Below, in pieces: positions 35,548 to 57,533 of a DNA stretch of 64,000 nucleotides (positions are counted from its first letter, which is position 1; every line of letters begins with the position of its first letter). Both the position numbers and the translations under genes were made by a program. The stretch is from an uncultured Latescibacterota bacterium (GTDB lineage: Bacteria; Latescibacterota; UBA2968): positions 1,039,339-1,103,338 of the forward strand of contig OX638329.1 in NCBI GenBank assembly GCA_951812755.1. The letters are read 5' to 3'. The notes under the pieces are model-generated. The model did not search any database. It saw nothing but the letters and a program-made list of their open reading frames with translations, and was not told where the DNA came from.

Positions 35548-35719
35548 CTCTATATCATTCACATCTTTAATGCCATAAAGGAGAAGGTCAGACTTCAGAC
35601 GAGGAAGCTCGAGGCGCGCTTTTTTAAACTACTCGTTTGATGGACAAAAGCAATACAAACAGATCATTGGTTTTATAAAATCAAAGAATTGATGGGTGCC
35701 TTTAACTGAGGAGCGCACT

Positions 35720-38700
35720 ATGTTTAAGCTGTTATTCCGTATGCCCTCATTGGCTGCCTTGATCTTTACAATTATATTCACCACTCTGTTGGTGCAATCT
35801 TTTTCTCTTTCCTCACAGACAAATAGTTTTTCCCTCTCTCTGGATTTGGACAGTTCCGAAGGTGACCAGGCTGTCCAGTCTCTCGATGTATCCCCCAATC
35901 AGGATGTTTCTATTCAGATTTTTGGCACAGATATTCAGTCTGCGAGTAGTCTTTCCGTTCGCTTTGAATACGATATGAATCAGGTTGTTTACGAAGGGTT
36001 TGATGCGGGTAATGTATTGCCAAATCCCGATGTGCGTGTAGAAGAGGGCACAAATCCTCCTACTGTCTCAGACGATAGCACAAGCACTATTTTACCCCAC
36101 AACGAGACAAGCTTTGTAGAGATCACTATAGCATCTATAGGATCTGCAACAGTCAACAGTGGTTTGATTGGTACATTGCATCTTCGCACAACAGATGCCT
36201 TTTCACAGACCGAGATTTTATTGGTGCGTGCCGAACTTGGGCGAGGTGGGCAAGTTGAAAGCGCGATGTTGAATTTACATGTAGAGTTACAAATCGCAGG
36301 GGCACCTTCTCCAGATTTTGACGGGAGTGGGTTTGTGGATTTGCAAGACCTTTTGCTGTTCAAAAAGGGGTTTGGCTCTCGTGTGGGACAAGAGCATTAT
36401 GAGGTCAAATACGACCTGAATGGCGATGGTGCGATTGGGGTAGAGGATTATTTGATTTTTATCCAGAGCTATGGCAAATGGGTGAATCGCGCACCGGTCT
36501 TCACGTCCAAGACTTATGTGACATACTTTATAGATGAGAACACGCCGGGGGGTGAACCGATAGGTGATCCCATCTCTGCCACGGATGCTGACGGCAATAT
36601 TGTGACCTACCACCTCAGTGGTACGGATGTAGATCTTTTTGCCTTTGACGCAGGCACGGGTCAGCTTCAGACAAAGGAAGGCATCACGTATGACTATGAA
36701 CATCGGACGACCTACTCCGTAATTGTTGAGGCGAGCGATGGGCAGGGGGGGACAGCGCGTCTTTTGGTGATCATCAAAATTAACGATTTGAAAGAACCGC
36801 CTTCTTCGTCACCGTCGAACTTTCTGGTCATTCCGGACAACGAGTCCCTCACCGTCCACTACGCTGCGGTGCCAGATGAGCGGGGGAGGCCGCCAGTAAG
36901 GGGGTATCATGCTGAGATTCGCAGGGGAGAGAAGGGTCCCTGGGGAACCCGCAAGACGATCTATGGTCGTACGAATACGTCTGTTTACTATCATAAAATA
37001 GATGTGCCTCGGTATCAAAACAGCTTCCTGGAAAATGGTCAATTATATCAGGTTCGAGTTCGCGCCTATAATTCTGATGGTGCAAGTACCTGGTCTGAGC
37101 CTGTTTCGGGCATACCAGTCTATACGCCACCCAAAGAGGAACCGAAGCTTGTGCAGTTTCAGGATGGCTATGCGATTATTGATCTGTCCCCTGTCACTGG
37201 TGAAGGGGGTAAAATCGTCGTCACGCAAGCGGATCTTCCTGCTACTATCCCGCAGGAGGAGGTTGAGGGGGTCTTCGCAGAAGGCGTCGTGGTTGCGGTT
37301 TCCAATGCTCCGGATGTACCTGCCTCTGCAGGCTTTATCCTTCCTGTTAGAGCATCACTCTTTGATATAGCTCTAAAGGCTCGGATTAATAACCGAGATG
37401 TTGATATCGGCGATGTATTGAGGGCACCTGTGGAGATTTGTTTGTCTGTGCCTGAGGATATTTTTGATCCGGTCATTGTCCATTACGATGATGGGGCGAG
37501 TGCCTGGGAAATGCTTGAGAGGCAGCGCGTAGATAACGATGTGGTCTGTGGTTATACCGATATGTTCTCGCTCTTTGGGATTGGCGTGAGTGTCAACCGC
37601 GCGCCAGTGGCGGTGGGAAGGTTTGAAGCGCAGATGCTGCGGGTGGGTGATGAAGGTGTGACAATAGATGTATCGGGCAAGTTTTCTGATCCTGATAACG
37701 ATGTTTTGACCTATGAGGCCGTGTCGAGTGATGAAGCTGTTGCAAAGGTGGATGTGTCGGGTTCTGTGGTGACGCTCACGCCTGTGGCTGAGGGCACAGC
37801 GACGGTTACTGTGACTGCGCGAGATGCAGCAGGTTCGAATCAGACTGCGGAGCAGACCATAGCTGTGACGATAAACAAGGCGGATGTGAAACTGAGCTTT
37901 GGTGGTGCGACAGTGTCTGCTCAGACTTATACGGTCGGGAGAGAGATTGACGATATCCAATTGCCCGAAGCGACGGGTGGCACGGGTATAATTGGCTATA
38001 CGCTCACGCCAGCACTGCCTGACGGTCTGGTGCTGGATGGAGAGACGCGTACGATTAGCGGCACGCCGACGGTTGCAATAGAGGCAAGGGATTATAAATG
38101 GAGAGCGACAGATGCGGACGAAAACACGATCGAACTGCTATTCTCCATCGCGGTGGAACCGGCCAATCGGGCACCAGTCTTCACCGACATATCGCCGCTC
38201 AGTGTGCGTGAGAACAGCACAGGAGTTGTGGTCACAGTCAGTGCAACAGATGCCGATAGCGATGATAGTATTACAGGCTATGGCATTGCTTCAGGTGCAG
38301 ATGGAGATCAGTTCTCTATTATGGCAGCAACTGGCGTGTTGAGCTTCACGATAGCACTGAACTATGAGATGCCTACTGATGTAGCAGTGACAGATCCAGC
38401 CAATGCTGCAAATAACAATGAATACATCGTGTATGTCACTGCAACTGGAGGCGTGGATGCAAGGGCACTGACAGCAAGAGATACGCTGACCATCTCTGTG
38501 ATGGATGTGACTGAGGCACCGGGTAAACCAGCCATGCCCGTGTTGTCAGATGCCACATTGAACAGTCTGAAGATCAGTTGGACAGCCCCTGCGAACACGG
38601 GTCCTGTGATCACGGCTTATGATGTGCGTTATATCCACAGTAGTGCCAGTGATGCAGATAAGGCAGATGACGATAACTGGACGGAGGAGGAGGATGCCTG

Positions 38701-41700
38701 GAGGATTGGTGGTGGAGCGCTTGAATACACGATTAGTCCGTTGGACCCCAACACTTCTTACGATGTGCAGGTGAGAGCGGAGAATACAGAAGGAGAAAGT
38801 GACTGGTCAGATACACTTGAAAAGATGACATCAGCCAATGTTGCCCCCGTGATCACGAGTGTATCGGCATTTAGCGTGAATGAGAACAGCACAGGGGATG
38901 TTGCCACGGTCACAGCAACAGATGCCGATGATGATGACGACATTGAGTCTTATGGCATTGCTTCAGGGGCAGATGGGGATCAATTCTCTATTGTGGCAGC
39001 GACAGGTGTGTTGACGTTCACGGCTGCACCGAACTTCGAGATGCCCACTGATGTGGAGGTGATAGACCCATCCAATGTAGCGAACAACAATGAATATATC
39101 GTGTATGTCACGGCAACGGGAGGAGAGAATGCACGAGCGTTGACATCAAGTGATACGATCACAGTGACCGTAACAGATGTGAATGAAGCACCGGTCTTCA
39201 GCAGTGCAGCGTCCGTTGATGTGTCTGAAAATAAGCAAGCTGTCGGCACGGTGGTCGCCGAAGATGTGGATGCAGATGACAGCATCACGGGCTATGCGCT
39301 TACCGGTGGAGCAGATCAAGCCCTGTTTGAGATCACGAGTGGGAACGTGTTGCGTTTCACGACTGCACCAGACTTTGAGTCTCCTGCCGATGCGTTAAGC
39401 ACAACGCCGTCAAATGCTGATGCTAACAACGAATACATCGTGGAGGTCACGGCGACGGGAGGTGCGGGTGCTCGGACGATGAGTGTGGTGCAGACGATCA
39501 CGGTGACTGTAACGGATGAGAATGAAGCGCCGATCTTTGCTACTATCTCACCGCCGTCAGTGAGTGAGAACAGCACAGGGGCTCTTGTGACGGTGGTTGC
39601 GAGTGATGAAGATACGGCTGACAACATTGAGAGTTATGGCATTGATACCAACGCTGCCGATGGGTCACAGTTCTCTATTGATACATCTACGGGCGTGTTG
39701 ACGTTCACGACAGCGCCGAACTTTGAGGATGCGAAGGATGTTGCGGTAACAGACCCTGCCAGTGGTGCAGGTGATAATGAATATATCGTGATCGTCACAG
39801 CGACAGGTGGAGAGAATGCACGTGCACTGACGGGGAGAGATACGATCAAGGTGACTGTGAAGGATGTGGATGGGGAAGCACCGGGTAAGCCTGCTATGCC
39901 GACGCTAGTACAAGCAACCGTGAACAGCCTGAAGATCAGTTGGAGTACACCGACGAACACAGGACCCCCTATCAGTTCTTATGATGTGCGCTATATCCTG
40001 ACCAGCGATGATGAGACAGATGATGATAATTGGACAGAGAAGGATGATGTCTGGACAAGTGTTACTGGCGGAGATCTTGAATACACGATAGATGGTTTGG
40101 ACCCCAACACTCCTTATGATGTGCAGGTGCGTGCGGAGAATGCGGAGGGAGAAAGTGATTGGTCAGATACACTTGAAAAGATGACGACAGCTAATGTTGC
40201 CCCCGTGATCACGAGTGTATCAGCCTTTAGCGTGAATGAGAACAGCACAGGGGATGTTGCCACGGTCACAGCAACAGATGCAGATGATGATGACAACATA
40301 GAAAGTTATGACATTGTTGCAGGTGGTGATGGGGCACAGTTTGAGATTGTTGCATCTACTGGTGTGTTGAGTTTTAAAGCCGCACCGAACTTCGAGGATC
40401 CAAAGGATGTTGCCTTTACTGATGCTACCAATTCAGCTAATGACAATGATGCCAACAATAATGAATACATCGTGATCGTGTCTGCAACAGGTGGAGAGAA
40501 TGCCCGAGCACTCACAGCAAGCGATACGATCAAGGTGACAGTGATAGATGTGAATGAGGCACCGGTCTTCAGCAGTGCAGCGTCCTTCGACGTGGGTGAA
40601 AATAAGCAAGCCGTCGGTACGGTGGTAGCTGATGATGTGGATAGTGAGGACAGTATCACGGGCTATGCACTTACCGGTGGAGCAGATCAAGCTCTGTTTG
40701 AGATCACGAGTGGGAATGAGTTGCGTTTCACGACTGCACCAGACTTTGAATCTCCTGCCGATGCGTTAAGCACAACGCCGTCAAATGCTGCTGCTAACAA
40801 CGAATACATCGTGGAGGTCACAGCGACAGGAGGTGCAGGTGATCGTGAGTTGACAGCCGTGCAGACGATCACAGTGACTGTGACGGATGAGAATGAGGCA
40901 CCGGTCTTTGCGACAGTCTCACCGCCGTCAGTGAGTGAGAACAGCACGGGGGATATTGTGACAGTCAGTGCGAGTGATGAAGATACGGCTGACAATATTG
41001 AGAGTTATGGCATTGATACCAGCGTTGCCGATGGGTCACAGTTCTCTATTGATACATCTACTGGTGTGTTGACGTTCACGACAGCACCGAACTTTGAATC
41101 TCCTACCGATGTGGCGGTTTCAGACCCAGCCAATGCCTTAGAGAATAATGAATATATCGTGATCGTTACAGCGACAAGTGGTGCGGATGCGCGTGTGCTG
41201 ACATCAAAAGATACACTTAAGGTGACAGTGATGGATGTGGATGGGGAGGCACCCGGTAAGCCTGCTACGCCGACGCTATCACAAGCGACAGTGAACAGCT
41301 TGAAGATCAGTTGGCGTGCGCCAACGAACACAGGTCCTCCTATCACAGCTTATGATGTGCGCTATATCCTTACCAGTGCAGATGAGACAGATGATGATAA
41401 TTGGACAGAAGTGACAGATGCCTGGACGAGTGGTGATGGTGCGCTTGAATACACGATTAGTCCGTTGGATCCCAACACTTCTTACGATGTGCAGGTGCGA
41501 GCAAAGAGCGATGAAGGGATGAGTGATTGGTCAGATACGCTTGAAAAGATGACCTCAGCCAATGTTGCCCCCGTGATCACGAGCATATCAGCCTTTAGCG
41601 TGAATGAGAATAGCACAGGGGATGTTGCCACGGTCACAGCAATGGATGCCGATGATAGTGACGACATTGAGTCTTATGGCATTGCTTCAGGGGCAGATGG

Positions 41701-44700
41701 GGATCAATTCTCTATTGTGGCAGCGACAGGTGTGTTGACGTTCACGGCTGCACCGAACTTCGAGATGCCCACTGATGTGGTGGTGATAGACCCATCCAAT
41801 GTAGCGAACAACAATGAATATATCGTGTATGTCACAGCAACGGGAGGAGAGAATGCACGAGCGTTGACATCAAGTGATACGATCACAGTGACCGTGATGG
41901 ATGTAAATGAAGCACCGGCCTTCAGCAGTGCAGCGTCCTTCGATGTGTCTGAAAATAAGCAAGCTGTCGGGAAAGTGGAAGCTGATGATGTGGATAGTGG
42001 GGACAGCATTACGGGCTATGCACTTACAGGTGGGGACGATCAAGCTAAGTTCTCACTTGTGCCAGAGACAGGTGCCTTGAGTTTTAAGGCCGCTCCTGAC
42101 TATGAGGTTGCAGGGGATTCGGATACAGACAATGCCTACCTTGTGGAGGTCACAGCGACGGGAGGTGCAGGTGCTCGGGCAATGAGTGTGGTGCAGGCGA
42201 TCACAGTGAGTGTGCAGGATGAGAATGAGGCGCCGGTCTTTGCTGCTGTCTTACCAATCAGTGTGAATGAGAACATCACAGGTGATATAGTGACAGTCAG
42301 TGCGAGTGATGAAGATACGGCTGACAATATTGAGAGTTATGGCATTGATACCAGCGTTGCCGATGGGTCACAGTTTTCTATTGATACATCTACGGGCGTG
42401 TTGACGTTCAAGGAAGCCCCGAACTATGAGGATGCGAAGGATGTAGCCTTTATCGATGCTGCCAATTCTGACAATGACAATGCAAAGGAGAATAATGAAT
42501 ACATCGTGATCGTCACAGCGACAGGTGGGACGGGTGATCGGGTACTAACAGCGAGCGATACGCTTAAGGTGACGGTGACAGATGTGGAAGGGGAAGCACC
42601 TGGCAAGCCTGCTACGCTGACGATAGCAGAAGCAACATTGAACAGCTTGAAGGTGAGTTGGAGTAAGCCGACGAACACAGGCCCTGCGATCAGTAGTTAC
42701 GATGTGCGGTACATCCTTACCAGTGCGAGTGCAGACGATAAGGCAGATGATAGCAACTGGACAGAAGTGACAGGTGCCTGGACGAGTGGCGCGCTTGAAT
42801 ATACGATCAGTCCATTGCTTCAGAATACAGAGTATGATATACAGGTTAGAGCAAGAAATGCGGAAGGGATGAGTGACTGGTCATCATCGGTGACAGGGAC
42901 GACAGAGCAGAATGTGGCGCCAGTCATTACGAGTGTATCATCGTTCTCAGTGGATGAGAACATCACGACAGCGACAACGGTTGGCACAGTGGCAGCCACA
43001 GATGCCGATGAAGGTGATGACATCACATATGGCATTGCTTCAGGTGCAGATGGGGATCAGTTCTCTATTGTGGAAGCGACAGGTGTGCTGACGTTCAATG
43101 CATCCCCGAACTATGAAGACCCCAGGGATGTAGCGTTTAATTATCCTGATAATACTGTCAATGCAGCGGAGAATAATGAGTATATCGTAATCGTCACAGC
43201 GACAGGAGGTACAGGCGCACATGCACTGACAGCGAGAGATACGATCACAGTGACAGTGATAGACGTGACTGAACCGCCAGGTGTGCCTGATGCGCCGATG
43301 ATAGCAGAATCAACATTTAATAGCTTGAAAATAGAATGGAGAGCGCCGACAAATACAGGTCCTGATATTAGTAATTATTATGTGCGCTATATCCTGACCA
43401 GTGCCAGTGATGATGATAAGGCAGATGATGATAATTGGACGGAGGATCCTGATGCGTGGAAATCAGATACAAACACGGACCTCACCTACACCATATCACC
43501 TCTGCTTCAGAGTACTTCTTATGATGTGCAGGTTAGAGCAAAGAGTGATGAAGGGATGAGTGATTGGTCAGATACAGTGGTAGGGACGACAGGGCAGAAT
43601 GTGGTGCCTGTGATCACGAGTGTATCGGCATTTAGTGTGAATGAGAACAGCACAGGAGATGTTGCCACGGTCACAGCAATGGATGCAGATACGGAGGACA
43701 GCATCACGGGGTATGGCATTGCTACGGGTGCAGATGGAGATCAGTTCTCTATTGGATCATCGACAGGTGTGTTGACGTTCAATACTGCTCCCAACTTTGA
43801 AGATCCCAAAGATGTAGCGGTTACCAACCCTTCTAATGATGCGGAGGATAATGAATATATCGTATTTGTCACGGCGATGGGTGGTGCAGATGCACGAGCG
43901 CTGACGGCAAGAGATACGATCACAGTGACCGTGATGGATGTGGATGGGGAAGCACCAGGCAAGCCTGATGCACCGACAGTATCGGCAACGTTTAACAGTC
44001 TGACGGTGAGTTGGAGTAAGCCGACGAACACGGGTCCTGACATTAGTTCTTATGATGTGCGCTATATCCTGACCAGTGCCAGTGATAGTGATAAGGCAGA
44101 TGATAGCAAGTGGACCTTGCAGGAGGATGCGTGGAAATCAGATACCAACACAGATCTTACCTACACCATATCACCTCTGACACAGGACACTTCTTATGAT
44201 GTGCAGGTTAGAGCAGAGAGTGATGAAGGGATGAGTGATTGGTCAGATACAAAGGTAGGGACGACAGTGCAGAATGTGGCCCCTGTGATCACGAGTGTAT
44301 CGGCATTTAGTGTGAATGAGAACAGCACAGGGATCATTGCCCTGGTGAGTGCAACAGACGCAGATAATGAGGACGACATCACAGGGTATAACATTGTTGC
44401 TGGCGCTGATGGGTCACAGTTTGAGATCACGTTCTCCAGTGTGGCACAGACGGGTGCGTTGATCTTCAAAGCCGTACCGAACTTTGAAGTGCCTACTGAT
44501 GTGGCGGTTACCAACCCTTCTAATGATGCGGAGAATAATGAATACATCGTGATCGTTTCTGCCACAGGTGGTGCAGATGCACGAGCGCTGACGGCAAGAG
44601 ATACGATCACAGTGACCGTGATGGATGTGGCTGAACCGCCTGGCAAGCCTGATGCACCGACGGTTGTGGCGATGTTTAATAGCCTGAAGGTGTCCTGGAC

Positions 44701-47700
44701 AGTGCCGACGAACACGGGTCCTGATATTAGTTCTTATGATGTGCGCTATATCCTGACCAGTGCCACGGATAAGGCAGACGCCAACTGGACAGAAGTGACA
44801 GAGGCCTGGGAGGCAGGTGATGGCGCGCTTGAATATACGATTGGCAGTTTGACTCAGAGCACTTCTTATGATGTGCAGGTTAGAGCAGAGAGCGATGAAG
44901 GGATGAGTGATTGGTCAGATACAAAGGTAGAGACGACAGGGCAGAATGTGGCCCCTGTGATCACAAGTGTATCGGCATTTAGCGTGAATGAGAACAGCAC
45001 AGGAGATGTTGCCACTGTCACAGCAATGGATGCAGATACGGCTGACAACATTGAGAGTTATGAGATTGCTACGGGTGCAGATGGAGATCAGTTCTCTATT
45101 GGATCATCGACAGGTGTGTTGACGTTCAATACTGCTCCCAACTTTGAAGAGCCTACTGATGTGGCGGTTACCAACCCTTCTAATGATGCGGAGAATAATG
45201 AATATATCGTATTTGTCACGGCGACGAGTGGAGAGAATGCGCGCGCCTTAACTTCAAGAGACACGATCACAGTGACCGTGATGGATGTAGCTGAACCGCC
45301 TGGCAAGCCTGATGCGCCGACAGTATCGGCAACGTTTAACAGTCTGACGGTGAGTTGGAGTAAGCCGACGAACACGGGTCCTGATATTAGTTCTTATGAT
45401 GTGCGCTATATCCTGACCAGCGATGATGAGACAATGGATGCCAACTGGACGGTGCAAGAGGATGCGTGGAAATCAGATACCAACACAGATCTTACCTACA
45501 CCATATCACCTCTGACACAGGACACTTCTTATGATGTGCAGGTTAGAGCAGAGAGCGATGAAGGGATGAGTGATTGGTCTGATACGGTTGTCGGGACGAC
45601 AGAAGCTAATGTGGCGCCTGTGATCACGAGTGTATCGGCATTTAGTGTGAATGAGAACAGCACAGGGGATGTTGCCACGGTCACAGCAATGGATGCAGAT
45701 GGCGATGACAGTATCACAGGGTATGACATCGTTGATGGTGCAGATGGAGATCAGTTCTCTATTGGCGCATTGACAGGTGTGTTGACGTTCAATACTGCTC
45801 CCAACTTTGAAGCTCCTACTGATGTGGCGGTTACAGATCCAGTTAATGCTGCGAGTAATAATGAATACATCGTGTATGTCACTGCCACAGGTGGTGCAGA
45901 TGCACGGGCCTTAACTTCAAGAGATACGATCACTGTAACTGTGATGGATGTGGATGGGGAAGCACCTGGTAAGCCTGATGCGCCGATGATAGCAGAAGCT
46001 ACGTTGAACAGCTTGAAGATCAGTTGGCGTGCGCCGACGAACACGGGGCCTGATATTAGTTCTTATGATGTGCGCCATATCCTGACCAGTGCCACGGATA
46101 AGGCAGACGCCAACTGGACAGAAGTGACAGAGGCCTGGGAGGCTGGTGATGGCGCGCTTGAATATACGATTGGCAGTTTGACTCAGAGCACTTCTTATGA
46201 TGTGCAGGTTAGAGCAGAGAGCGATGAAGGGATGAGTGATTGGTCTGATACGGTTGTCGGGACGACAGAAGCTAATGTGGCCCCTGTGATCACGAGTATA
46301 TCGGCATTTAGTGTGAATGAGAACAGCACAGGAGATGTTGCCACTGTCACAGCAATGGATGCAGATACGGGTGACAGCATCACGGGGTATGGGATTGCTA
46401 CGGGTGCAGATGGGGATCAGTTCACTATTGGATCATCGACAGGTGTGTTGACGTTCAAGGTAGCACCCAACTATGAAGAGCCTACTGATGTGGCGGTTAC
46501 CAACCCTTCTAATGATGCGGAGGATAATGAATATATCGTATTTGTCACGGCGACGAGTGGAGAGAATGCGCGCGCCTTAACTTCAAGAGACACGATCACG
46601 GTGACCGTGATGGATGTAGCTGAACCGCCTGGCAAGCCTGATGCGCCGACAGTATCGGCAACGTTTAACAGTCTGACGGTGAGTTGGAGTAAGCCGACGA
46701 ACACGGGTCCTGATATTAGTTCTTATGATGTGCGCTATATCCTGACCAGCGATGATGAGACAATGGATGCCAACTGGACGGTGCAAGAGGATGCGTGGAA
46801 ATTAGATACCAACACAGATCTTACCTACACCATATCACCTCTGACACAGAGCACTTCTTATGATGTGCAGGTTAGAGCAAAGAGTGATGAAGGGATGAGT
46901 GATTGGTCAGATACAGTGGTAGGGACGACAGGGCAGAATGTGGCGCCTGTGATCACGAGTGTATCGGCATTTAGTGTGAATGAGAACAGCACAGGGGATG
47001 TTGCCACGGTCACAGCAATGGATGCAGATGGCGATGACAGTATCACAGGGTATGGCATTGCTACGGGTGCAGATGGAGATCAGTTCTCTATTGGCGCATT
47101 GACAGGTGTGTTGACGTTCAATACTGCTCCCAACTTTGAAGATCCCAAAGATGTAACGGTTACAGATCCAGTTAATGCTGCGAGTAATAATGAATACATC
47201 GTGTATGTCACTGCCACAGGTGGCGCAGATGCACGGGCATTGACAGCACACGATACGCTTAAAGTCACGGTGAGCGATGTGAACGAAGTGCCGATCTTCA
47301 GCAGTGCAGCGTCCTTCGATGTGGATGAAAATAAGCAAGCCGTCGGCACAGTGGAAGCCGATGATGTGGATAGTCAGGATAGCATCACAGGCTATGCGAT
47401 TACGGGTGGGGACGATCGGGCTAAGTTCTCCATTGTGTCGGGAACAGGCGCATTGAGTTTTAAGACCGCTCCTGACTATGAGGTTGCAGGGGATTCGGAT
47501 ACAGACAATGCCTACCTTGTGGAGGTCACAGCGACGGGAGGTGCAGGTACTCGGGCACAGAGTGTGGTGCAGGCGATCACAGTGACAGTGGTGGATGAGA
47601 ATGAGGAGCCTGTTTTCGCTGCTGTCTCACCGATCAGTGTGAATGAGAACAGCACAGCGGCTCTTGTGACGGTCAGTGCGAGTGATGAAGATACGGCTGA

Positions 47701-50700
47701 CAATATTGAGAGTTATGATATTGCTACGGGTGCAGATGGATCACAGTTCTCTATTGATGCATCTACGGGCGTGTTGACGTTCATGACAGCGCCGAACTTT
47801 GAGGATGCGAAGGATGTAGCGGTTACCGATCCGGCTAATGATGCGGAGGATAATGAATATATCGTATATGTCACGGCGACGGGAGGTGCGGGTGATCGGG
47901 CATTGACGGGGAGAGATATACTCACTGTAACTGTGATGAATGTGATTGAACCGCCGGGTAAGCCTGATGTGCCGACAGTATCGGCAACGTTTAACAGTTT
48001 GACGGTGAGTTGGAGTGCGCCGACGAATACGGGACCATCTATCAGTAGTTATGATGTGCGCTACATTCTGACCAGTGCCAGTGATGATGATAAGGCAGAT
48101 GATACTAAGTGGACAGAGGTTATGGATGCGTGGACGAGTGGTGCTTTGGAATACACGATTGGGAGTTTGGACGACAACACTTCTTATGATATTCAGGTGC
48201 GTGCAGAGAATGATGAAGGGATGAGTGATTGGTCTGATACAGTGGTAAGGATGACCGAGGTCGCTCCAGGGATATGTGGTCGCACGCCGGCAGTCCAAAC
48301 TGCGATATTGTCCAGGACTGCCTCAGCTGGTGTTGTTGACTGTGCCCTGGTCACGGACGCGCTCCTGGAGCTTCTCAGTGGGACTTTGGATCTTAATAGT
48401 CAGGATGTTAACACCTTAAAGGCAGACGACTTTTCCGATCTGTCCAGTCTGCAAACCCTGCGTCTTGATCAGAATTCTTTAGAGGCACTGCCCGAGGGGA
48501 TATTCTCCGGCTTGTCCAGCTTGCAAATCCTGCGTCTTGAACGGAATTCTTTAGAGAGACTTCCCGAGGGGTTGTTCTCCGGTCTATCCAGTCTGCAATT
48601 CCTGTATCTCGACCGGAATTCTTTAGAGACATTGCCCCAGGGGATATTCACTGGTCTGTCCAGTCTGCAAATACTGAATCTTGCTCGGAATTCTTTAGAG
48701 ACATTGCCCGAAGGGATATTCTCCGACTTGTCCAGTTTGGAGAGGTTAGAGCTTGATAGAAACGATTTGAGCACACTACCCGAGGGGATATTCACTGGTC
48801 TGTCCAGCCTGCAAATACTGAATTTTAAGGATAACGACTTTAACACTCTGCCCAATGGTCTGTTCTCTGGGCTGCCGTCCGCTCTGACAGAGCTGAATTT
48901 ATCTGATAATATGGGTGCGCCCTTCACCCTTACAATGGTATTGGAACGCACAGACAATACGGCTTTGACAGCGGCGGGACCCGCCACGGTTGTGGTCAAA
49001 GTTGCTGAGGGTGCGCCGTTGGATATGACTGTTAGCTTATCGGTAATGGGTGGCACACTGACGGATGAGAATATGAAGCCGATTTCGCAAGTGACAATTT
49101 CAACGGGCAGCATCCAGAGCATCCCCATAACGGTGAGGAAGAGTGGTGCATCACAGACCACACTTGCTTTGGGGACTGCACCTGCACTACCGGGAAGCTA
49201 CAATAGTATTCAGACCGCTGTGGGTATGTCGCTCGACCTGTTCGAATCGGGGATATGTGACCGTACACAGGCAGTCCAAACAGCGATATTGTCTGAGATA
49301 GCAAGTATTAGTGACTGTGCTATGGTCACAGACGCGCATCTGACCGGGATTACAGGGACTTTAGATCTTAGCGATATGAGTATCACTGAGTTGCGGGAAA
49401 ACGATTTCTCTGGTCTGTCAAATCTGGGCATTCTGCGTCTTTCCAGAAATTCTTTACAAACATTGCCCTATGGACTGTTCTCAGGCTTGTCCAGCCTGGA
49501 AAGGTTAGAGCTTGGTAGAAACGATTTGGCGACCCTTTCCGATAATGTGTTTTCGGATCTGTCCAGTCTGCAAGCTCTGCGTCTTGAAAACAACCCGTTG
49601 GGCGAACTTCCGGATAATGTGTTTTCGGATCTGTCCAGCCTGCAAACTCTGCGTCTTGATAATACCGCTCTGACCAATATTCCAAGGGATCTATTCATCG
49701 GTCTGTCCAGCCTGCAAACGCTGGATCTTAGCATGAACGAGTTGGAGATGCTTTCCGATGACATATTTTCAGAGCTATCCAATTTGAGCTCCCTGAGTCT
49801 TAGCGACAACTCACTGGACGTGCTCCCTGATCGCGTATTCTCCGGTCTGTCCAGCCTGGAAACCCTGTATCTCGATCAGAATTTTTTAGAGACACTGCCC
49901 GATGGGGTGTTCTCAGGCTTGTCCAGCCTGCAAGGGTTAGAGCTTGACAGAAATCTATTGAACGCATTACCCAGAGGGGTATTCACTGGTCTGTCCAGCC
50001 TGCAAAGGATAAAGCTTGACAGAAATAAATTGAGCACACTACCCAGAAGGATATTCGCTGGTCTGTCCAGCCTGCGAATCCTGAATCTTAAGGACAATGA
50101 CTTTGAAACCCTGCCCAATGGTCTGTTCTCCGGCCTGCCGTCCGCCTTGAGAAATCTGAATTTATCTGATAATACGGGTGCGCCCTTCACCCTTACAATG
50201 ATATTGGAACGCGCGGGACCTGCCACGGTTGTGGCCAAAGTTGTTCAGGGTGCGCCGTTTGATATGACTGTCAGCTTATCAATCACGGGTGGCACACTGA
50301 CGGATGCGAATGGGATGTCGATTTCGCAAGTGACACTTTCAACGGGCAAAATCCACAGCGACCCCATAACGGTGACGCAGAATAGCTTATTATCACAGGT
50401 CACGCTTAGTTTGGGGACTGCACCTGCGCTACCAGGAGGCTACAATGAAGATGGTATTCAGACCGCCGTAGGTACGTCTCTTAAATTCCAGGCAGGGGGG
50501 ATATGTGGTCGCACGCAGCCAGTCCAAACAGCGATATTGTCTGAGATAACAGGTGTTAGTGACTGTGCTCTGGTCACAACCGCGCATCTGACCGGGATTA
50601 CGGGAACTTTAGATCTTAGCGATAAGAGTATCTCTGTGTTGCAGGCAAGCGATTTTACTGGTCTGTCAGCACTTCAAAACTTATGGCTCCACGATAATGA

Positions 50701-53233
50701 TTTAAGCACCCTTCCCGCTGGTGTGTTTTCGGGTCTGTCCAGTCTTCAAACCCTGAGCCTTTACAGAAATAATCTAAGCGACCTGCCGGATAATGTGTTT
50801 TCGGGTCTGTCCAGTCTTCAAACCCTGAGTCTTGACAATACCGGTTTGACCAGTCTTCCGATGGGTATATTCACTGGTCTGTCAGCACTTCAAAACTTAT
50901 GGCTCCACGATAATGGTTTAAGGTCCCTTTCCGCTGATGTGTTTTCGGGTCTGTCCAGTCTGCAAAATTTGAGCCTTAGTAACAACAGGCGGTTGCGGAC
51001 CCTTCCCAAGGATGTGTTTTCGGGTCTGTCCAGTCTTCAAACTCTGCGCCTTTACAATACCGGTCTAACCAGTCTTCGGAGGGATGTATTCACTGGTCTG
51101 TCCAGTCTTCAAACTCTAAATCTCGATGATAACAGTCTGTCCAATCTTCGGATGGGTATATTCACTGGTCTGTCCAGTCTTCAAACTCTGGGTCTTAGCA
51201 ACAACACGTTGGGGTCCCTTCCCGCTAATGTGTTTTCGGGTCTATCCAATTTGAGATTCCTGAGTCTTGACGGCAATGGTCTGGGCACGCTCCCGGATCG
51301 CGCATTCTCCGGTTTGTCCAGTCTGCAAACTCTAAATCTCGGCGGCAACACATTGAGCGCACTTCCCGATAGCGCGTTCTTCGACCTGTCCGGCTTACAA
51401 ATACTGAATCTCAAGGGCAACATGTTGACCACGCTACCCGATAGTGTGTTCTACGGTCTATCCATATTGAGAGAGCTGGATGTGTCTGATAATACGGGTG
51501 CGCCCTTCACCGTTGCGTTGGCGTTGCAACGCACAGACAATACGGACTTGACAGCGGCGGGACCTGCCACGGTTGTGGTCAGTGTTGCTCAGGGTGCGCC
51601 GTTTGATATGACCATCAATCTATCGGCAAGAGATGTCACAATGCCGGATGAGAATCCATCGTTTTTGCAGACGACAATTTCAAAGGGTAGTATCCAGAGC
51701 GACCCCGTAACGGTGACGCAGAGCGGTACATCACCGATCAGAGTTAGTCTGTTGGGCCAGGCACCTGAGGCGCCAACAGACTATGAAGACATCTATACAG
51801 CTTTTGGTTCATCGCTCGTTTTGTTCGGTGAAGCGGCGAACCGCGCGCCCGAGGCGGTGGGTTCAATTGCCGCACAGATACTAAAGGTGGGAGATGCCGC
51901 AATACATGTGGAGGTACAAAATAATTTTTCGGATCCAGATGGCGACATTTTGAGCTACAGCGCGACTTCAGATATGCCCAGCGTAGCTTCGGCGAGGATG
52001 AGGACAAATGTGCCGTCTGAAGTGAGGATAAATCCAGTGAGTGCGGGGCGTGCAACGGTGACGGTGACGGCAAGTGATCAGACCAACAGTGTCACGCAGG
52101 AGTTCGAGGTGATCGTGAAGAATACGGCGCCTGTGGTCGATAAAGGGCTTACCGATCAGATCGCATTATCGGGCAGCGCGTTTACATACACCTTTCCAGC
52201 AGATGCGTTTAGCGATACCGATAATGATGCTCTTACCTATACGAGTAGCGGAGAGCCGGCGTGGTTGACTTTTGCTCCGGCCTCGCGCACGTTCAGCGGC
52301 ACGCCATCTAATACTGAGGGTTCGCCCTTTACGATTATCGTAATAGCTGATGACGGCAAAGACAGTCAGGTACAGACGAGTTTTACTCTGACAGTTCCCA
52401 TAGGGATTTGCGGTCGGACTTCACAGATACAAACTGCTATCCTGTCTGTGATAGACGGGGTTAACAACTGCGCCCATGTCACAAAGGAGCATTTGTCCGG
52501 GATCGTGGATTCTTTGGATCTTCGAGATCAGAGTATCACCACCTTGCAGGCGAATGATTTTTCTGGCATGCCCAATCTGAGGATCCTGAATTTTTACGAC
52601 AATGACCTTGCCGCACTGCCTTCGGGTGTGTTTTCTGGCCTGTCGAATTTGAGATTCTTGAGTCTTTATAAAAATGCATTGACCGCATTGCCTTCGGGTG
52701 TGTTTTCTGGCCTGTCGAATTTGAGATTTGTGAGTCTTGATAGCAATTCGGTGAGTACACTGCCCGCCAACGTGTTTTCCGGTTTGTCGAATCTGGAGGC
52801 TCTGAGTCTGAATGGAAATACGTTGAGCGCGTTACCCGCTGGCGTATTTTCCGGCTTGTCCAGCCTGAGTCATCTGGATGTGTCTGGTAATACGGGCGCG
52901 CCCTTTACCCTTACGCTGGCGTTGGAACGCACAGACAATACGGACTTGACAGCGGCAGGACCCGCCACGGTTGTAGTCAAAATTGCCCAGGGCGCACCGT
53001 TTGATATGACCATCAGCCTGTCGGTAATAGATGGCGTACTGACGGATGAGGATAGCAACCCGATTACAGAGGTGACTATTTCAAAGGGTAGTATCCAGAG
53101 CGAACCCATAACGGTGACACAGAGCGGGACAATAGCGACCACAGTCAGTCTGGCGTCTGCACCTGACCTACCGGCGAACTATGTTGGCATCCAGATTTCT
53201 GTGGGTACTTCGCTCGTTCTGTTCGGGCCATAG
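35720..53233 (+). CDS. giant secreted modular protein: cohesin-like, dockerin, cadherin-like/FN3 array, LRR blocks
   Basis: The protein has 5,837 residues, about 600 kDa. After a signal peptide (about 1-33) comes a cohesin-like beta-sandwich (about 35-195), e.g. SLSVRFEYDMNQVVYEGF. A dockerin follows, with loops DFDGSGFVDLQDLLLF and YDLNGDGAIGVEDYLIF. Next come one cadherin-like and one FN3 module, an undefined beta domain and Ig-like domains (to about 810). Then there are about 19 cadherin-like modules (APVITSVSAFSVNENSTG, ATDADxDD, DVNEAP) and 11 FN3 modules. The C-terminal third has four LRR blocks (SGLSSLQTLRLDxNxL), each capped by a GICGRT...DCA motif and followed by a beta domain. No LPXTG, PEP-CTERM or type IX sorting signal is visible at the end (SLVLFGP). 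The ATG at 35720 has GAGGAG 7 nt upstream. It probably acts as a calcium-stabilised surface scaffold or adhesin. This function is inferred. Confidence 0.9.
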   Translation: MFKLLFRMPSLAALIFTIIFTTLLVQSFSLSSQTNSFSLSLDLDSSEGDQAVQSLDVSPNQDVSIQIFGTDIQSASSLSVRFEYDMNQVVYEGFDAGNVLPNPDVRVEEGTNPPTVSDDSTSTILPHNETSFVEITIASIGSATVNSGLIGTLHLRTTDAFSQTEILLVRAELGRGGQVESAMLNLHVELQIAGAPSPDFDGSGFVDLQDLLLFKKGFGSRVGQEHYEVKYDLNGDGAIGVEDYLIFIQSYGKWVNRAPVFTSKTYVTYFIDENTPGGEPIGDPISATDADGNIVTYHLSGTDVDLFAFDAGTGQLQTKEGITYDYEHRTTYSVIVEASDGQGGTARLLVIIKINDLKEPPSSSPSNFLVIPDNESLTVHYAAVPDERGRPPVRGYHAEIRRGEKGPWGTRKTIYGRTNTSVYYHKIDVPRYQNSFLENGQLYQVRVRAYNSDGASTWSEPVSGIPVYTPPKEEPKLVQFQDGYAIIDLSPVTGEGGKIVVTQADLPATIPQEEVEGVFAEGVVVAVSNAPDVPASAGFILPVRASLFDIALKARINNRDVDIGDVLRAPVEICLSVPEDIFDPVIVHYDDGASAWEMLERQRVDNDVVCGYTDMFSLFGIGVSVNRAPVAVGRFEAQMLRVGDEGVTIDVSGKFSDPDNDVLTYEAVSSDEAVAKVDVSGSVVTLTPVAEGTATVTVTARDAAGSNQTAEQTIAVTINKADVKLSFGGATVSAQTYTVGREIDDIQLPEATGGTGIIGYTLTPALPDGLVLDGETRTISGTPTVAIEARDYKWRATDADENTIELLFSIAVEPANRAPVFTDISPLSVRENSTGVVVTVSATDADSDDSITGYGIASGADGDQFSIMAATGVLSFTIALNYEMPTDVAVTDPANAANNNEYIVYVTATGGVDARALTARDTLTISVMDVTEAPGKPAMPVLSDATLNSLKISWTAPANTGPVITAYDVRYIHSSASDADKADDDNWTEEEDAWRIGGGALEYTISPLDPNTSYDVQVRAENTEGESDWSDTLEKMTSANVAPVITSVSAFSVNENSTGDVATVTATDADDDDDIESYGIASGADGDQFSIVAATGVLTFTAAPNFEMPTDVEVIDPSNVANNNEYIVYVTATGGENARALTSSDTITVTVTDVNEAPVFSSAASVDVSENKQAVGTVVAEDVDADDSITGYALTGGADQALFEITSGNVLRFTTAPDFESPADALSTTPSNADANNEYIVEVTATGGAGARTMSVVQTITVTVTDENEAPIFATISPPSVSENSTGALVTVVASDEDTADNIESYGIDTNAADGSQFSIDTSTGVLTFTTAPNFEDAKDVAVTDPASGAGDNEYIVIVTATGGENARALTGRDTIKVTVKDVDGEAPGKPAMPTLVQATVNSLKISWSTPTNTGPPISSYDVRYILTSDDETDDDNWTEKDDVWTSVTGGDLEYTIDGLDPNTPYDVQVRAENAEGESDWSDTLEKMTTANVAPVITSVSAFSVNENSTGDVATVTATDADDDDNIESYDIVAGGDGAQFEIVASTGVLSFKAAPNFEDPKDVAFTDATNSANDNDANNNEYIVIVSATGGENARALTASDTIKVTVIDVNEAPVFSSAASFDVGENKQAVGTVVADDVDSEDSITGYALTGGADQALFEITSGNELRFTTAPDFESPADALSTTPSNAAANNEYIVEVTATGGAGDRELTAVQTITVTVTDENEAPVFATVSPPSVSENSTGDIVTVSASDEDTADNIESYGIDTSVADGSQFSIDTSTGVLTFTTAPNFESPTDVAVSDPANALENNEYIVIVTATSGADARVLTSKDTLKVTVMDVDGEAPGKPATPTLSQATVNSLKISWRAPTNTGPPITAYDVRYILTSADETDDDNWTEVTDAWTSGDGALEYTISPLDPNTSYDVQVRAKSDEGMSDWSDTLEKMTSANVAPVITSISAFSVNENSTGDVATVTAMDADDSDDIESYGIASGADGDQFSIVAATGVLTFTAAPNFEMPTDVVVIDPSNVANNNEYIVYVTATGGENARALTSSDTITVTVMDVNEAPAFSSAASFDVSENKQAVGKVEADDVDSGDSITGYALTGGDDQAKFSLVPETGALSFKAAPDYEVAGDSDTDNAYLVEVTATGGAGARAMSVVQAITVSVQDENEAPVFAAVLPISVNENITGDIVTVSASDEDTADNIESYGIDTSVADGSQFSIDTSTGVLTFKEAPNYEDAKDVAFIDAANSDNDNAKENNEYIVIVTATGGTGDRVLTASDTLKVTVTDVEGEAPGKPATLTIAEATLNSLKVSWSKPTNTGPAISSYDVRYILTSASADDKADDSNWTEVTGAWTSGALEYTISPLLQNTEYDIQVRARNAEGMSDWSSSVTGTTEQNVAPVITSVSSFSVDENITTATTVGTVAATDADEGDDITYGIASGADGDQFSIVEATGVLTFNASPNYEDPRDVAFNYPDNTVNAAENNEYIVIVTATGGTGAHALTARDTITVTVIDVTEPPGVPDAPMIAESTFNSLKIEWRAPTNTGPDISNYYVRYILTSASDDDKADDDNWTEDPDAWKSDTNTDLTYTISPLLQSTSYDVQVRAKSDEGMSDWSDTVVGTTGQNVVPVITSVSAFSVNENSTGDVATVTAMDADTEDSITGYGIATGADGDQFSIGSSTGVLTFNTAPNFEDPKDVAVTNPSNDAEDNEYIVFVTAMGGADARALTARDTITVTVMDVDGEAPGKPDAPTVSATFNSLTVSWSKPTNTGPDISSYDVRYILTSASDSDKADDSKWTLQEDAWKSDTNTDLTYTISPLTQDTSYDVQVRAESDEGMSDWSDTKVGTTVQNVAPVITSVSAFSVNENSTGIIALVSATDADNEDDITGYNIVAGADGSQFEITFSSVAQTGALIFKAVPNFEVPTDVAVTNPSNDAENNEYIVIVSATGGADARALTARDTITVTVMDVAEPPGKPDAPTVVAMFNSLKVSWTVPTNTGPDISSYDVRYILTSATDKADANWTEVTEAWEAGDGALEYTIGSLTQSTSYDVQVRAESDEGMSDWSDTKVETTGQNVAPVITSVSAFSVNENSTGDVATVTAMDADTADNIESYEIATGADGDQFSIGSSTGVLTFNTAPNFEEPTDVAVTNPSNDAENNEYIVFVTATSGENARALTSRDTITVTVMDVAEPPGKPDAPTVSATFNSLTVSWSKPTNTGPDISSYDVRYILTSDDETMDANWTVQEDAWKSDTNTDLTYTISPLTQDTSYDVQVRAESDEGMSDWSDTVVGTTEANVAPVITSVSAFSVNENSTGDVATVTAMDADGDDSITGYDIVDGADGDQFSIGALTGVLTFNTAPNFEAPTDVAVTDPVNAASNNEYIVYVTATGGADARALTSRDTITVTVMDVDGEAPGKPDAPMIAEATLNSLKISWRAPTNTGPDISSYDVRHILTSATDKADANWTEVTEAWEAGDGALEYTIGSLTQSTSYDVQVRAESDEGMSDWSDTVVGTTEANVAPVITSISAFSVNENSTGDVATVTAMDADTGDSITGYGIATGADGDQFTIGSSTGVLTFKVAPNYEEPTDVAVTNPSNDAEDNEYIVFVTATSGENARALTSRDTITVTVMDVAEPPGKPDAPTVSATFNSLTVSWSKPTNTGPDISSYDVRYILTSDDETMDANWTVQEDAWKLDTNTDLTYTISPLTQSTSYDVQVRAKSDEGMSDWSDTVVGTTGQNVAPVITSVSAFSVNENSTGDVATVTAMDADGDDSITGYGIATGADGDQFSIGALTGVLTFNTAPNFEDPKDVTVTDPVNAASNNEYIVYVTATGGADARALTAHDTLKVTVSDVNEVPIFSSAASFDVDENKQAVGTVEADDVDSQDSITGYAITGGDDRAKFSIVSGTGALSFKTAPDYEVAGDSDTDNAYLVEVTATGGAGTRAQSVVQAITVTVVDENEEPVFAAVSPISVNENSTAALVTVSASDEDTADNIESYDIATGADGSQFSIDASTGVLTFMTAPNFEDAKDVAVTDPANDAEDNEYIVYVTATGGAGDRALTGRDILTVTVMNVIEPPGKPDVPTVSATFNSLTVSWSAPTNTGPSISSYDVRYILTSASDDDKADDTKWTEVMDAWTSGALEYTIGSLDDNTSYDIQVRAENDEGMSDWSDTVVRMTEVAPGICGRTPAVQTAILSRTASAGVVDCALVTDALLELLSGTLDLNSQDVNTLKADDFSDLSSLQTLRLDQNSLEALPEGIFSGLSSLQILRLERNSLERLPEGLFSGLSSLQFLYLDRNSLETLPQGIFTGLSSLQILNLARNSLETLPEGIFSDLSSLERLELDRNDLSTLPEGIFTGLSSLQILNFKDNDFNTLPNGLFSGLPSALTELNLSDNMGAPFTLTMVLERTDNTALTAAGPATVVVKVAEGAPLDMTVSLSVMGGTLTDENMKPISQVTISTGSIQSIPITVRKSGASQTTLALGTAPALPGSYNSIQTAVGMSLDLFESGICDRTQAVQTAILSEIASISDCAMVTDAHLTGITGTLDLSDMSITELRENDFSGLSNLGILRLSRNSLQTLPYGLFSGLSSLERLELGRNDLATLSDNVFSDLSSLQALRLENNPLGELPDNVFSDLSSLQTLRLDNTALTNIPRDLFIGLSSLQTLDLSMNELEMLSDDIFSELSNLSSLSLSDNSLDVLPDRVFSGLSSLETLYLDQNFLETLPDGVFSGLSSLQGLELDRNLLNALPRGVFTGLSSLQRIKLDRNKLSTLPRRIFAGLSSLRILNLKDNDFETLPNGLFSGLPSALRNLNLSDNTGAPFTLTMILERAGPATVVAKVVQGAPFDMTVSLSITGGTLTDANGMSISQVTLSTGKIHSDPITVTQNSLLSQVTLSLGTAPALPGGYNEDGIQTAVGTSLKFQAGGICGRTQPVQTAILSEITGVSDCALVTTAHLTGITGTLDLSDKSISVLQASDFTGLSALQNLWLHDNDLSTLPAGVFSGLSSLQTLSLYRNNLSDLPDNVFSGLSSLQTLSLDNTGLTSLPMGIFTGLSALQNLWLHDNGLRSLSADVFSGLSSLQNLSLSNNRRLRTLPKDVFSGLSSLQTLRLYNTGLTSLRRDVFTGLSSLQTLNLDDNSLSNLRMGIFTGLSSLQTLGLSNNTLGSLPANVFSGLSNLRFLSLDGNGLGTLPDRAFSGLSSLQTLNLGGNTLSALPDSAFFDLSGLQILNLKGNMLTTLPDSVFYGLSILRELDVSDNTGAPFTVALALQRTDNTDLTAAGPATVVVSVAQGAPFDMTINLSARDVTMPDENPSFLQTTISKGSIQSDPVTVTQSGTSPIRVSLLGQAPEAPTDYEDIYTAFGSSLVLFGEAANRAPEAVGSIAAQILKVGDAAIHVEVQNNFSDPDGDILSYSATSDMPSVASARMRTNVPSEVRINPVSAGRATVTVTASDQTNSVTQEFEVIVKNTAPVVDKGLTDQIALSGSAFTYTFPADAFSDTDNDALTYTSSGEPAWLTFAPASRTFSGTPSNTEGSPFTIIVIADDGKDSQVQTSFTLTVPIGICGRTSQIQTAILSVIDGVNNCAHVTKEHLSGIVDSLDLRDQSITTLQANDFSGMPNLRILNFYDNDLAALPSGVFSGLSNLRFLSLYKNALTALPSGVFSGLSNLRFVSLDSNSVSTLPANVFSGLSNLEALSLNGNTLSALPAGVFSGLSSLSHLDVSGNTGAPFTLTLALERTDNTDLTAAGPATVVVKIAQGAPFDMTISLSVIDGVLTDEDSNPITEVTISKGSIQSEPITVTQSGTIATTVSLASAPDLPANYVGIQISVGTSLVLFGP
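38160..42600 (+). repeat. higher-order repeat: FN3 plus three cadherin-like modules, about 1.36 kb per unit
   Basis: Equivalent points (GATCACGAGTGTATC or its variant) fall at 38851, 40207, 41575 and 42925, i.e. steps of 1,350-1,368 bp. Each unit encodes FN3, then cadherin-like modules beginning APVITSV, then VFSSAAS, then ISPPSVSENSTG or similar. Nucleotide identity between units is high by eye. Confidence 0.85.
42601..47290 (+). repeat. tandem repeat: FN3 plus one cadherin-like module, about 665 bp per unit
   Basis: Equivalent points fall at 43612, 44287, 44959, 45622, 46288 and 46951, steps of 663-675 bp. Several neighbouring units share long identical stretches, pointing to recent expansion or gene conversion. 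Confidence 0.88.
48269..51833 (+). repeat. three leucine-rich-repeat blocks with Cys-containing caps and beta-domain spacers
   Basis: Blocks start at about 48269, 49249 and 50496, each with a GICxRTxxVQTAIL cap, a DCA motif and about 8-14 LRRs of 24 residues. Each is followed by a roughly 110-residue beta domain (GAPFTLT...GPATVV). The LRR type is the consensus xLxxLxLxxNxLxxLPxxxF. Confidence 0.85.
52401..53230 (+). repeat. fourth LRR block and final beta domain
   Basis: After two Ig/cadherin-like domains (about 51834-52400) the cap motif recurs (GICGRTSQIQTAIL), with about five LRRs and the same beta domain, which forms the C-terminus of the protein. Confidence 0.82.
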
Positions 53234-56585: not shown

Positions 56586-56624
56586 AATAAAAAAGCCGCC
56601 ACACAATGTGGCGGCTTTTTTATT
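56586..56624. terminator. bidirectional rho-independent terminator
   Basis: A perfect 18-bp stem (core AAAAAAGCCGCCACA / TGTGGCGGCTTTTTT) with loop CAA carries A and T runs on both sides. It separates the convergent PL8 and DUF5069-like genes and overlaps the last stop codon of the latter. Confidence 0.95.
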
Positions 56625-56898
56625 ACTCAGAATGCGACTTGTCCCAGATGGGTTTTACTTTTTCGATGACTTCGGCATCGGTCGGACTGGATGCGACGAT
56701 GTTCGTGAATTCTTCGGCTTCAACTCCAAGTTCCTCCAGGAACTTTCTGTCAGCTGGTCACGGATAGATGTAGTCACCGATGCAGCCTCGCAATTTTGCG
56801 CGGGCTTTATCTGTAATGCGCGGGAGCCAGGGCATGTCGCCCATGTAAAGCTGGCGGCTACGCGGTCTAAAATCAACAGCGGAACTGAGTTTGTCCAT
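56623..56898 (-). CDS. DUF5069-like small protein with in-frame TGA at the conserved Cys (candidate selenoprotein)
   Basis: The frame starts at the ATG at 56898 with AAGGAGG 8 nt upstream, reads MDKLSSAVDFRPRSRQLYMG and then PWLPRITDKARAKLRGCIGD. It meets TGA at codon 47 within YIYP-TGA-PADRKFLEELG, then continues to TAA at 56625. The whole frame is 91 codons plus the final stop. Relatives of this family have YxxCPxDxxFL at this place, so the TGA replaces a conserved Cys. Both sides read as normal family sequence, without other stops or frameshifts. A hairpin with SECIS geometry lies just downstream of the TGA. It is 62 bp after rsmD, probably in the same operon. The function of the family is unknown. 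The alternatives are a Cys-to-stop mutation or sequencing error. Confidence 0.75.
56721..56760 (-). promoter_or_regulatory. candidate bacterial SECIS element
   Basis: Downstream of TGA (56760-56758) the RNA can form a lower stem CAGCU/AGUUG (56756-56752 with 56725-56721). An internal loop leads to a 7-bp upper stem AAGUUCC/GGAACUU and the apical loop UGGA (56738-56735). The UGA-to-loop distance is 19 nt, and a G is in the second loop position. Both fit published bacterial SECIS rules. Confidence 0.6.
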
Positions 56899-56960
56899 TG
56901 TAGATTCCTCCTTATGTTGTGATTAGTTAGAACTTAGTGATTTTGGCGATGGATAGCAAG

Positions 56961-57533
56961 TTAGAAATTAAGGGTGTATGTGCTCAGCGTTGTGTCGCCA
57001 TATTTTTTTTCTCGGGAGAGGATGAGGTTGGAAAAGGATTTGGGTAGCGGTGTACGAGAGGCGTGTTGGACGAGAACGCGGGCGTTGGACGCGAGTATCG
57101 GAGTTGTTGCGAGGCGGGTGAGCATGGCGCAGGACATGGGTTGCCCGTCTAATTGTTGTTGGTAGGGGGGGTCGAGGTAGATGATGTCAAATAGGGCTTT
57201 AGAATGCGCGAGTTGGGGCAAGAGTTTTTGTGCGGGACGCGCGTAAAGATAGATGCGGTCGTTGAGATGCCAATTTTCTATGAGTTGTGCGATGAAGCGG
57301 TTGCAGCGGCGGTCGGGTTCATTGATGACCACCTGCGCACCGCGGCTGCAAGCTTCAAGGCCGATTTGACCAGAGCAGGAGAAGAGGTCGAGGAAATATT
57401 TGCCGTAGAGGATTTCGCCGAGGGAAGAGAATACGGCTTTTTTCACAAAGTCGGATGTGACGCGGGCATTGCCGTACTTTTTATTGTTAAAGGGGATGCG
57501 GCGGCCCTTGAATTCGCCAGCGATGATGCGCAT
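56961..57533 (-). CDS. rsmD: 16S rRNA (guanine(966)-N(2))-methyltransferase
   Basis: This is a cytosolic methyltransferase of 190 residues that modifies G966 of 16S rRNA (E. coli numbering) with S-adenosylmethionine. The N-terminus MRIIAGEFKGRRI is the family hallmark. Motif I reads FLDLFSCSGQIGLEA and the catalytic motif IYLDPPYQQQ. ARVTSDFVKKAVFSSL matches the RPT..RVREALF-type segment in shortened form. The start at 57533 is 11 bp after the GWxTD gene stop, so the two are probably co-transcribed. Confidence 0.93.
   Translation of the reverse strand: MRIIAGEFKGRRIPFNNKKYGNARVTSDFVKKAVFSSLGEILYGKYFLDLFSCSGQIGLEACSRGAQVVINEPDRRCNRFIAQLIENWHLNDRIYLYARPAQKLLPQLAHSKALFDIIYLDPPYQQQLDGQPMSCAMLTRLATTPILASNARVLVQHASRTPLPKSFSNLILSREKKYGDTTLSTYTLNF

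What the first reader, a model, noticed from the sequence alone, without database searches (positions are those of the whole stretch)
56623..56898. Candidate new selenoprotein: DUF5069-like protein with TGA at its conserved Cys
A 91-codon frame with a strong ribosome site is intact on both sides of a single TGA. The TGA falls in YIYP-TGA-PAD, where relatives have Cys followed by Pro and a near Asp. Elsewhere in the window TGA is used as a normal stop, so the code is not reassigned. Cys/Sec exchange at a conserved position is the classical sign of a selenoprotein. I do not know of a described Sec form of this family, and novelty is unverified.
Basis: partly seen in the sequence, partly recalled or inferred. 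Interest (0 to 1): 0.9.

Follow-up and report, generated by a model that had tools for sequence, protein, structure and literature searches.

The report
New selenoprotein family: Sec-form DUF5069
A small uncharacterised bacterial protein is very probably built with the rare amino acid selenocysteine, because its internal stop codon is kept in 36 related genomes, is replaced by cysteine in 7 others, and is followed by the RNA hairpin that tells the ribosome to insert selenium.

Summary
Confirmed and strengthened. The minus strand at 56898-56623 encodes a 91-residue DUF5069 protein (Pfam E 1.7e-16) with one in-frame TGA (56760-56758) where relatives, including solved structure 3OMD, have Cys. 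The host is a complete Latescibacterota genome with selA, selB, tRNA-Sec and a TGA-containing selD. Orthologues occur in 43 of 47 genomes of the class: 36 have TGA at exactly this codon, 7 have Cys, none has another residue. All 36 TGA genes carry the loop UGGA 19 nt downstream, 35 on a stem of 6-7 pairs with compensatory changes, which meets the loop, stem and spacing rules of the published bacterial SECIS model. The four codons that encode it are frozen at synonymous sites in the Sec form; all seven Cys genes lack the intact element. One Cys genome has no selB, tRNA-Sec or selD match; the Cys genus g14 has also swapped selD to Cys. No DUF5069 selenoprotein is in the 2026 inventory of 119 families or the open literature searched. 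This is a probable new selenoprotein family, ancient in its class. A one-Sec redox role is most likely but only inferred. Selenium incorporation has not been shown biochemically.

The parts
56623..56898 (-). Sec-form DUF5069 gene, 91 codons plus TAA
   Evidence: translation; Pfam PF16798 E 1.7e-16, residues 12-83; 43 orthologues in the class
56758..56760 (-). in-frame TGA, predicted selenocysteine codon (residue 47)
   Evidence: TGA in 36 genomes, TGC/TGT in 7; Cys in 3OMD
56728..56745 (-). predicted bacterial SECIS apical hairpin: stem AAGUUCC/GGAACUU, loop UGGA (56738-56735), 19 nt after the UGA
   Evidence: compensatory pairs; synonymous freezing of codons +6 to +9; loop in 36/36 Sec and 0/7 Cys genes
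56907..56913 (-). ribosome-binding site AAGGAGG
   Evidence: sequence
56595..56615 (.). two-way intrinsic terminator (GC-rich hairpin with T tract on each strand) just after the TAA, so the transcription unit ends after the full-length frame and not after the TGA
   Evidence: consensus scan
56961..57533 (-). rsmD-like gene (PF03602) directly upstream on the same strand; the order is kept in several genera of families f1 and f2

Best explanation
The gene encodes a selenoprotein. SelB carrying Sec-tRNA(Sec) binds the UGGA-loop hairpin just downstream of the UGA, so the ribosome inserts selenocysteine at position 47 and continues to the TAA. The product is a short (about 90 residues) DUF5069 protein with one Sec in the motif [YF]-P-U-x-A-D at the start of a helix, placed where Cys lies in other DUF5069 proteins. 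Shown by comparison: the UGA site, the Cys/Sec exchange, the SECIS-like element, and the decoding genes. Inferred: actual Sec insertion, and that Sec is the catalytic nucleophile of a redox reaction of the one-Cys type, because no second Cys is conserved. The Sec form probably dates to the ancestor of the class and later reverted to Cys once or twice in family f4. Confidence below is for the claim that UGA47 encodes Sec; for the redox role I would put about 0.65.
For: (1) 36 TGA and 7 Cys orthologues, with no other residue at the site. (2) selA next to selB, tRNA-Sec at 73 bits (gathering score 47), and selD with its own TGA in the same complete genome; tRNA-Sec in 41 and selB in 43 of 47 class genomes, and every TGA genome has at least one of the two. 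(3) Loop UGGA in 36/36 Sec genes, 35 with a stem of 6-7 pairs; none of the 7 Cys genes keeps the UGGA loop. Compensatory pairs GC/CG and AU/GC; 91.6% of cells paired against 80.8% in shuffles, 0 of 500 shuffles as high. [quoted passage not shown] (4) Codons +6 to +9 (TTC CTG GAG GAA) show no synonymous change among 16 representatives, against a mean same-codon fraction of 0.46; these are the four highest of 71 scored codons and they adjoin (chance of adjoining 7e-5). (5) Purifying selection on both sides: pN/pS 0.34 before and 0.45 after the UGA. (6) G023, with Cys, has no selB, tRNA-Sec or selD match; the five g14 genomes with Cys have also changed selD to Cys. (7) Profile and solved-structure match across the UGA.
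Against: No protein, selenium label or ribosome-profiling data. Single-sequence folding of the window's hairpin is unremarkable (z -1.2); the support comes from comparison. G062 has a mismatch at the top of the stem. The selD SECIS has GG at the same distance from UGA in the f1/f2 genomes read, but not in g13. Constraint after the UGA is somewhat weaker than before it. The redox role rests on analogy.
Confidence: 0.95

Rival explanations
1. Nonsense mutation or sequencing error: the gene is a pseudogene or the TGA is miscalled.
For: Single in-frame TGA; isolated TGAs are usually this.
Against: Same TGA in 36 genomes of the class, with constraint on both sides and no other lesion.
Confidence: 0.01
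2. The UGA is read through by an ordinary near-cognate tRNA (Trp, Arg or Cys), or acts as a regulated stop with a short and a long product, without selenium.
For: Read-through is known in general, and a 46-residue product from failed decoding is likely to exist to some degree (inference).
Against: The only alternative residue ever found is Cys; a hairpin with the properties of a SECIS sits at SECIS spacing; the hairpin decays where the codon is Cys; the genome has the full Sec machinery; a genome without detected machinery has Cys.
Confidence: 0.03
3. TGA is reassigned in this lineage.
For: The frame is open across a TGA.
Against: TGA ends 10 of 25 long frames in the window, and some orthologues use TGA both at the Sec site and as their own stop.
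Confidence: 0.005
4. It is a selenoprotein, but Sec is a metal ligand or structural residue and not a redox nucleophile.
For: No resolving Cys is conserved, the only fold match is 3OMD, itself of unknown function, and the function of DUF5069 is unknown.
Against: No cluster of His/Cys ligands is conserved around it. Known selenoproteins use Sec mostly for redox chemistry (review PMC13188914). In genus g13 the gene abuts an oxidoreductase-like gene with an NAD-binding domain.
Confidence: 0.25

Closest known systems
DUF5069 (Pfam PF16798), solved member 3OMD from Leptospirillum rubarum
   Same: Homologous across the Sec site; Cys of YNCPLD aligns with Sec of YPUPAD; the low-confidence model matches 3OMD (TM 0.62).
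   Different: Sec in place of Cys; about 90 residues, covering only about the first half of the 133-position profile, where most other family members in these genomes match nearly all of it; in many long paralogues the Cys site is replaced by a GxxSGxD-like stretch.
Catalogued bacterial selenoproteins (119 families/subfamilies, review PMC13188914)
   Same: In-frame UGA, Cys homologues, SECIS just downstream, sel genes in the genome.
   Different: DUF5069 / PF16798 and a UxxD or UxAD motif are not in the table, and no NCBIfam model matches the window protein; no UxxC/CxxU motif or thioredoxin-like domain was recognised.
Sec-containing SelD of the same genome
   Same: UGA followed by a hairpin with GG at the same distance (+23/+24, counting the U of UGA as 0) in the f1/f2 genomes read; both genes turn to Cys in genus g14.
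   Different: Unrelated protein; selD loops in g13 do not share the GG position.

Membership tests
Bacterial selenoprotein gene | In-frame UGA conserved in independent genomes | tested here: met
   36 genomes of the class
Bacterial selenoprotein gene | Cys homologues at the same site | tested here: met
   7 orthologues with TGC/TGT; 3OMD
[quoted passage not shown]
   loop UGGA, 6-7 bp, 19 nt; rules from PMC13188914. The model's energy threshold was not tested
Bacterial selenoprotein gene | selA, selB, tRNA-Sec and selD in the genome | tested here: met
Bacterial selenoprotein gene | UGA remains a stop elsewhere | tested here: met
   10 of 25 long frames in the window end in TGA
Bacterial selenoprotein gene | Selenium present in the protein | not testable with these tools
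   needs 75Se labelling or mass spectrometry
DUF5069 (PF16798) | Score above the gathering cut-off | tested here: met
   61 bits against 27
DUF5069 (PF16798) | Full-length domain (133 positions) | tested here: not met
   profile positions 4-75 only; a short subfamily
Selenoprotein family already catalogued (2026 inventory, NCBIfam) | Listed by domain or name, or matched by a model | tested here: not met
   no PF16798/DUF5069; no NCBIfam match for the window protein, only chance-level ones in relatives
Thioredoxin-fold redox selenoproteins | Thioredoxin-like fold or UxxC/CxxU motif | tested here: not met
   only 3OMD matched convincingly by fold, from a low-confidence model; no Cys conserved near U47

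The most novel reading that the evidence does not exclude
DUF5069-U is an ancient, class-wide selenoenzyme with a fold outside the thioredoxin group and a chemistry not yet assigned to any selenoprotein, which would make the Cys of DUF5069 in general a catalytic residue.
Probability: 0.4. Interest if true: 0.75.

Novelty: new member of a known kind. Interest (0 to 1): 0.62.

Why it matters
Cys/Sec exchange usually marks a catalytic residue. This gives a functional handle on DUF5069, a Pfam family for which no paper was found in the open literature searched, and points to one residue in an already solved structure (3OMD). It adds a family to the bacterial selenoproteome from an uncultured phylum, and shows Sec kept at one site across a class while one genus has Cys in both this gene and selD. 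Gene callers will truncate it at residue 46, so it is probably missing or broken in annotations.

Tried and rejected
Rfam scan of the window: no hit at gathering scores. Viral-structure, viral-contig and plasmid searches: no relatives. Single-sequence folding: not significant. Gene context as a functional clue: rsmD upstream is kept only in parts of f1/f2, and an oxidoreductase-like gene follows only in g13, so neither is class-wide. Rejected: pseudogene, code reassignment, re-initiation after the TGA (no ATG, GTG or TTG codon in frame just after the TGA in the window; sequence inspection). Could not test: a Sec form outside this phylum (the one scan of named genomes was used; it found close relatives only). 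Could not read: one 2025 selenoprotein paper, the 2026 groundwater MAG paper cited by the review, and supplements.

Full report
WHAT IS THERE. On the minus strand at 56898-56623 a 91-codon frame starts at ATG behind AAGGAGG, has one in-frame TGA at residue 47 (56760-56758) and ends at TAA. A two-way terminator-like hairpin follows the TAA at once, so the transcription unit appears built for the full-length frame. Pfam assigns DUF5069 across residues 12-83, on both sides of the TGA. The only solved relative found, 3OMD, has Cys aligned with the TGA.

THE HOST. The window lies in a single-contig 6.53 Mb genome, about 99.6% complete. Its close relatives are labelled Latescibacterota in most records, two as Gemmatimonadota. 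The genome holds selA adjoining selB, tRNA-Sec at 73 bits, and next to it a selD that itself contains one TGA. The code is not reassigned: 10 of 25 long frames in the window stop at TGA.

RELATIVES. A profile of the short DUF5069 proteins found an orthologue in 43 of the 47 class genomes searched and in none of the 17 genomes from other classes of the phylum. At the site in question 36 have TGA and 7 have TGC or TGT: five genomes of genus g14, G023 of g11, and G063 of g12. No third residue occurs. The gene tree, built without the site itself, needs a single change between Sec and Cys (81/82 support). The Cys genes lie inside family f4 with Sec genes elsewhere on the tree, so the Sec form is probably ancestral in the class (the root is not inferred by the program, so this direction is an inference).

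DECODING GENES TRACK THE CODON. tRNA-Sec was found in 41 and selB in 43 of 47 class genomes. Every TGA genome has at least one of them; the gaps fall in incomplete assemblies. G023, which has Cys, shows no selB, tRNA-Sec or selD match (86% complete). In the five g14 genomes with Cys, selD has no TGA either, although selB remains in all five. That looks like one lineage moving away from Sec in two unrelated genes. G063 has Cys but keeps the machinery.

THE SECIS. Starting 12 nt after the UGA, the Sec genes carry a hairpin with loop UGGA (19 nt between UGA and loop). The loop is UGGA in 36 of 36 Sec genes, and 35 have a stem of 6-7 contiguous pairs; G062 has one mismatch at the top of the stem. 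The stem covaries: one pair is GC in 13 and CG in 9 distinct sequences, and the next is AU, GU or GC; 91.6% of cells are paired against 80.8% in shuffles, and sliding the partner destroys the signal. The published bSECIS rules (loop 3-9 nt with G in the first two places, stem 4-16 bp, spacing 16-37 nt; PMC13188914) are met. The four codons +6 to +9, which encode the loop and the top of the stem, are always TTC CTG GAG GAA where the residues are the same in 16 representatives. Their same-codon fraction is 1.0 against a mean of 0.46, and they are the four highest of 71 scored codons. In the seven Cys genes the loop is TGCG, TACA or TGCA and the stem is broken in six. An RNA constraint inside the coding sequence, present only with TGA, is what a SECIS predicts. 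In the f1/f2 genomes read, including this one, the selD UGA is followed by a hairpin with GG at the same distance; in g13 it is not.

SELECTION. Pooled pN/pS is 0.34 before and 0.45 after the UGA, with synonymous differences near saturation on both sides. The part after the UGA is translated and constrained, a little less than the part before.

HOW IT PROBABLY WORKS. Shown by comparison: the UGA site, the Cys/Sec exchange, the SECIS-like element and the machinery. Inferred: Sec is inserted at residue 47 and is the reactive residue. The low-confidence model puts U47 just before a helix (48-57), a place where a selenolate is often activated (general knowledge). Invariant residues W24, R27, D30, K31, R33, Y43, P46, A49, D50 and F53 may form the pocket. 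No other Cys is conserved, so a one-Sec mechanism with an outside thiol or reductase is the simplest guess. In genus g13 the gene directly abuts an oxidoreductase with an NAD-binding domain, which fits a redox role but is not class-wide.

WHAT IS KNOWN. No paper in the open library contains DUF5069. The 2026 inventory of 119 prokaryotic selenoprotein families/subfamilies does not list it, nor do the new-family tables of the GOS and deep-Sep papers. No NCBIfam model matches the window protein. One 2025 paper, the 2026 groundwater survey and supplements could not be read, so priority is likely but not certain. It passes every testable criterion of a bacterial selenoprotein; as a DUF5069 protein it is a short form that covers about half the profile.

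LIMITS. No selenium measurement, no reads, and no survey of Sec forms outside this phylum.

Noticed in passing
L168, L169, L175, L190 and G031 (genus g14): SelD has no in-frame TGA in this genus although selB is kept in all five genomes and tRNA-Sec in three: a lineage apparently leaving Sec use.
   Followed up: partly
G012:C12:44763-44856 and G012:C31:164838-164931: Two tRNA-Sec matches of equal score in one genome; could be a true second copy or an assembly duplicate.
   Followed up: no
window 35692-53233, + strand: One open frame of about 5,846 codons; a giant protein, not examined.
   Followed up: no
L021-L053 (long DUF5069 paralogues): Multi-domain DUF5069 proteins alternate domains with YNCPxD and domains in which the Cys site is replaced by a GxxSGxD-like stretch, which may mean active and inactive repeats.
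   Followed up: partly
L150, L154, L155, L156 (genus g13): The Sec-DUF5069 gene sits tightly between an unassigned ORF of about 370 codons, which has no Pfam match and ends at its start codon, and an oxidoreductase-like gene with an NAD-binding domain.
   Followed up: partly
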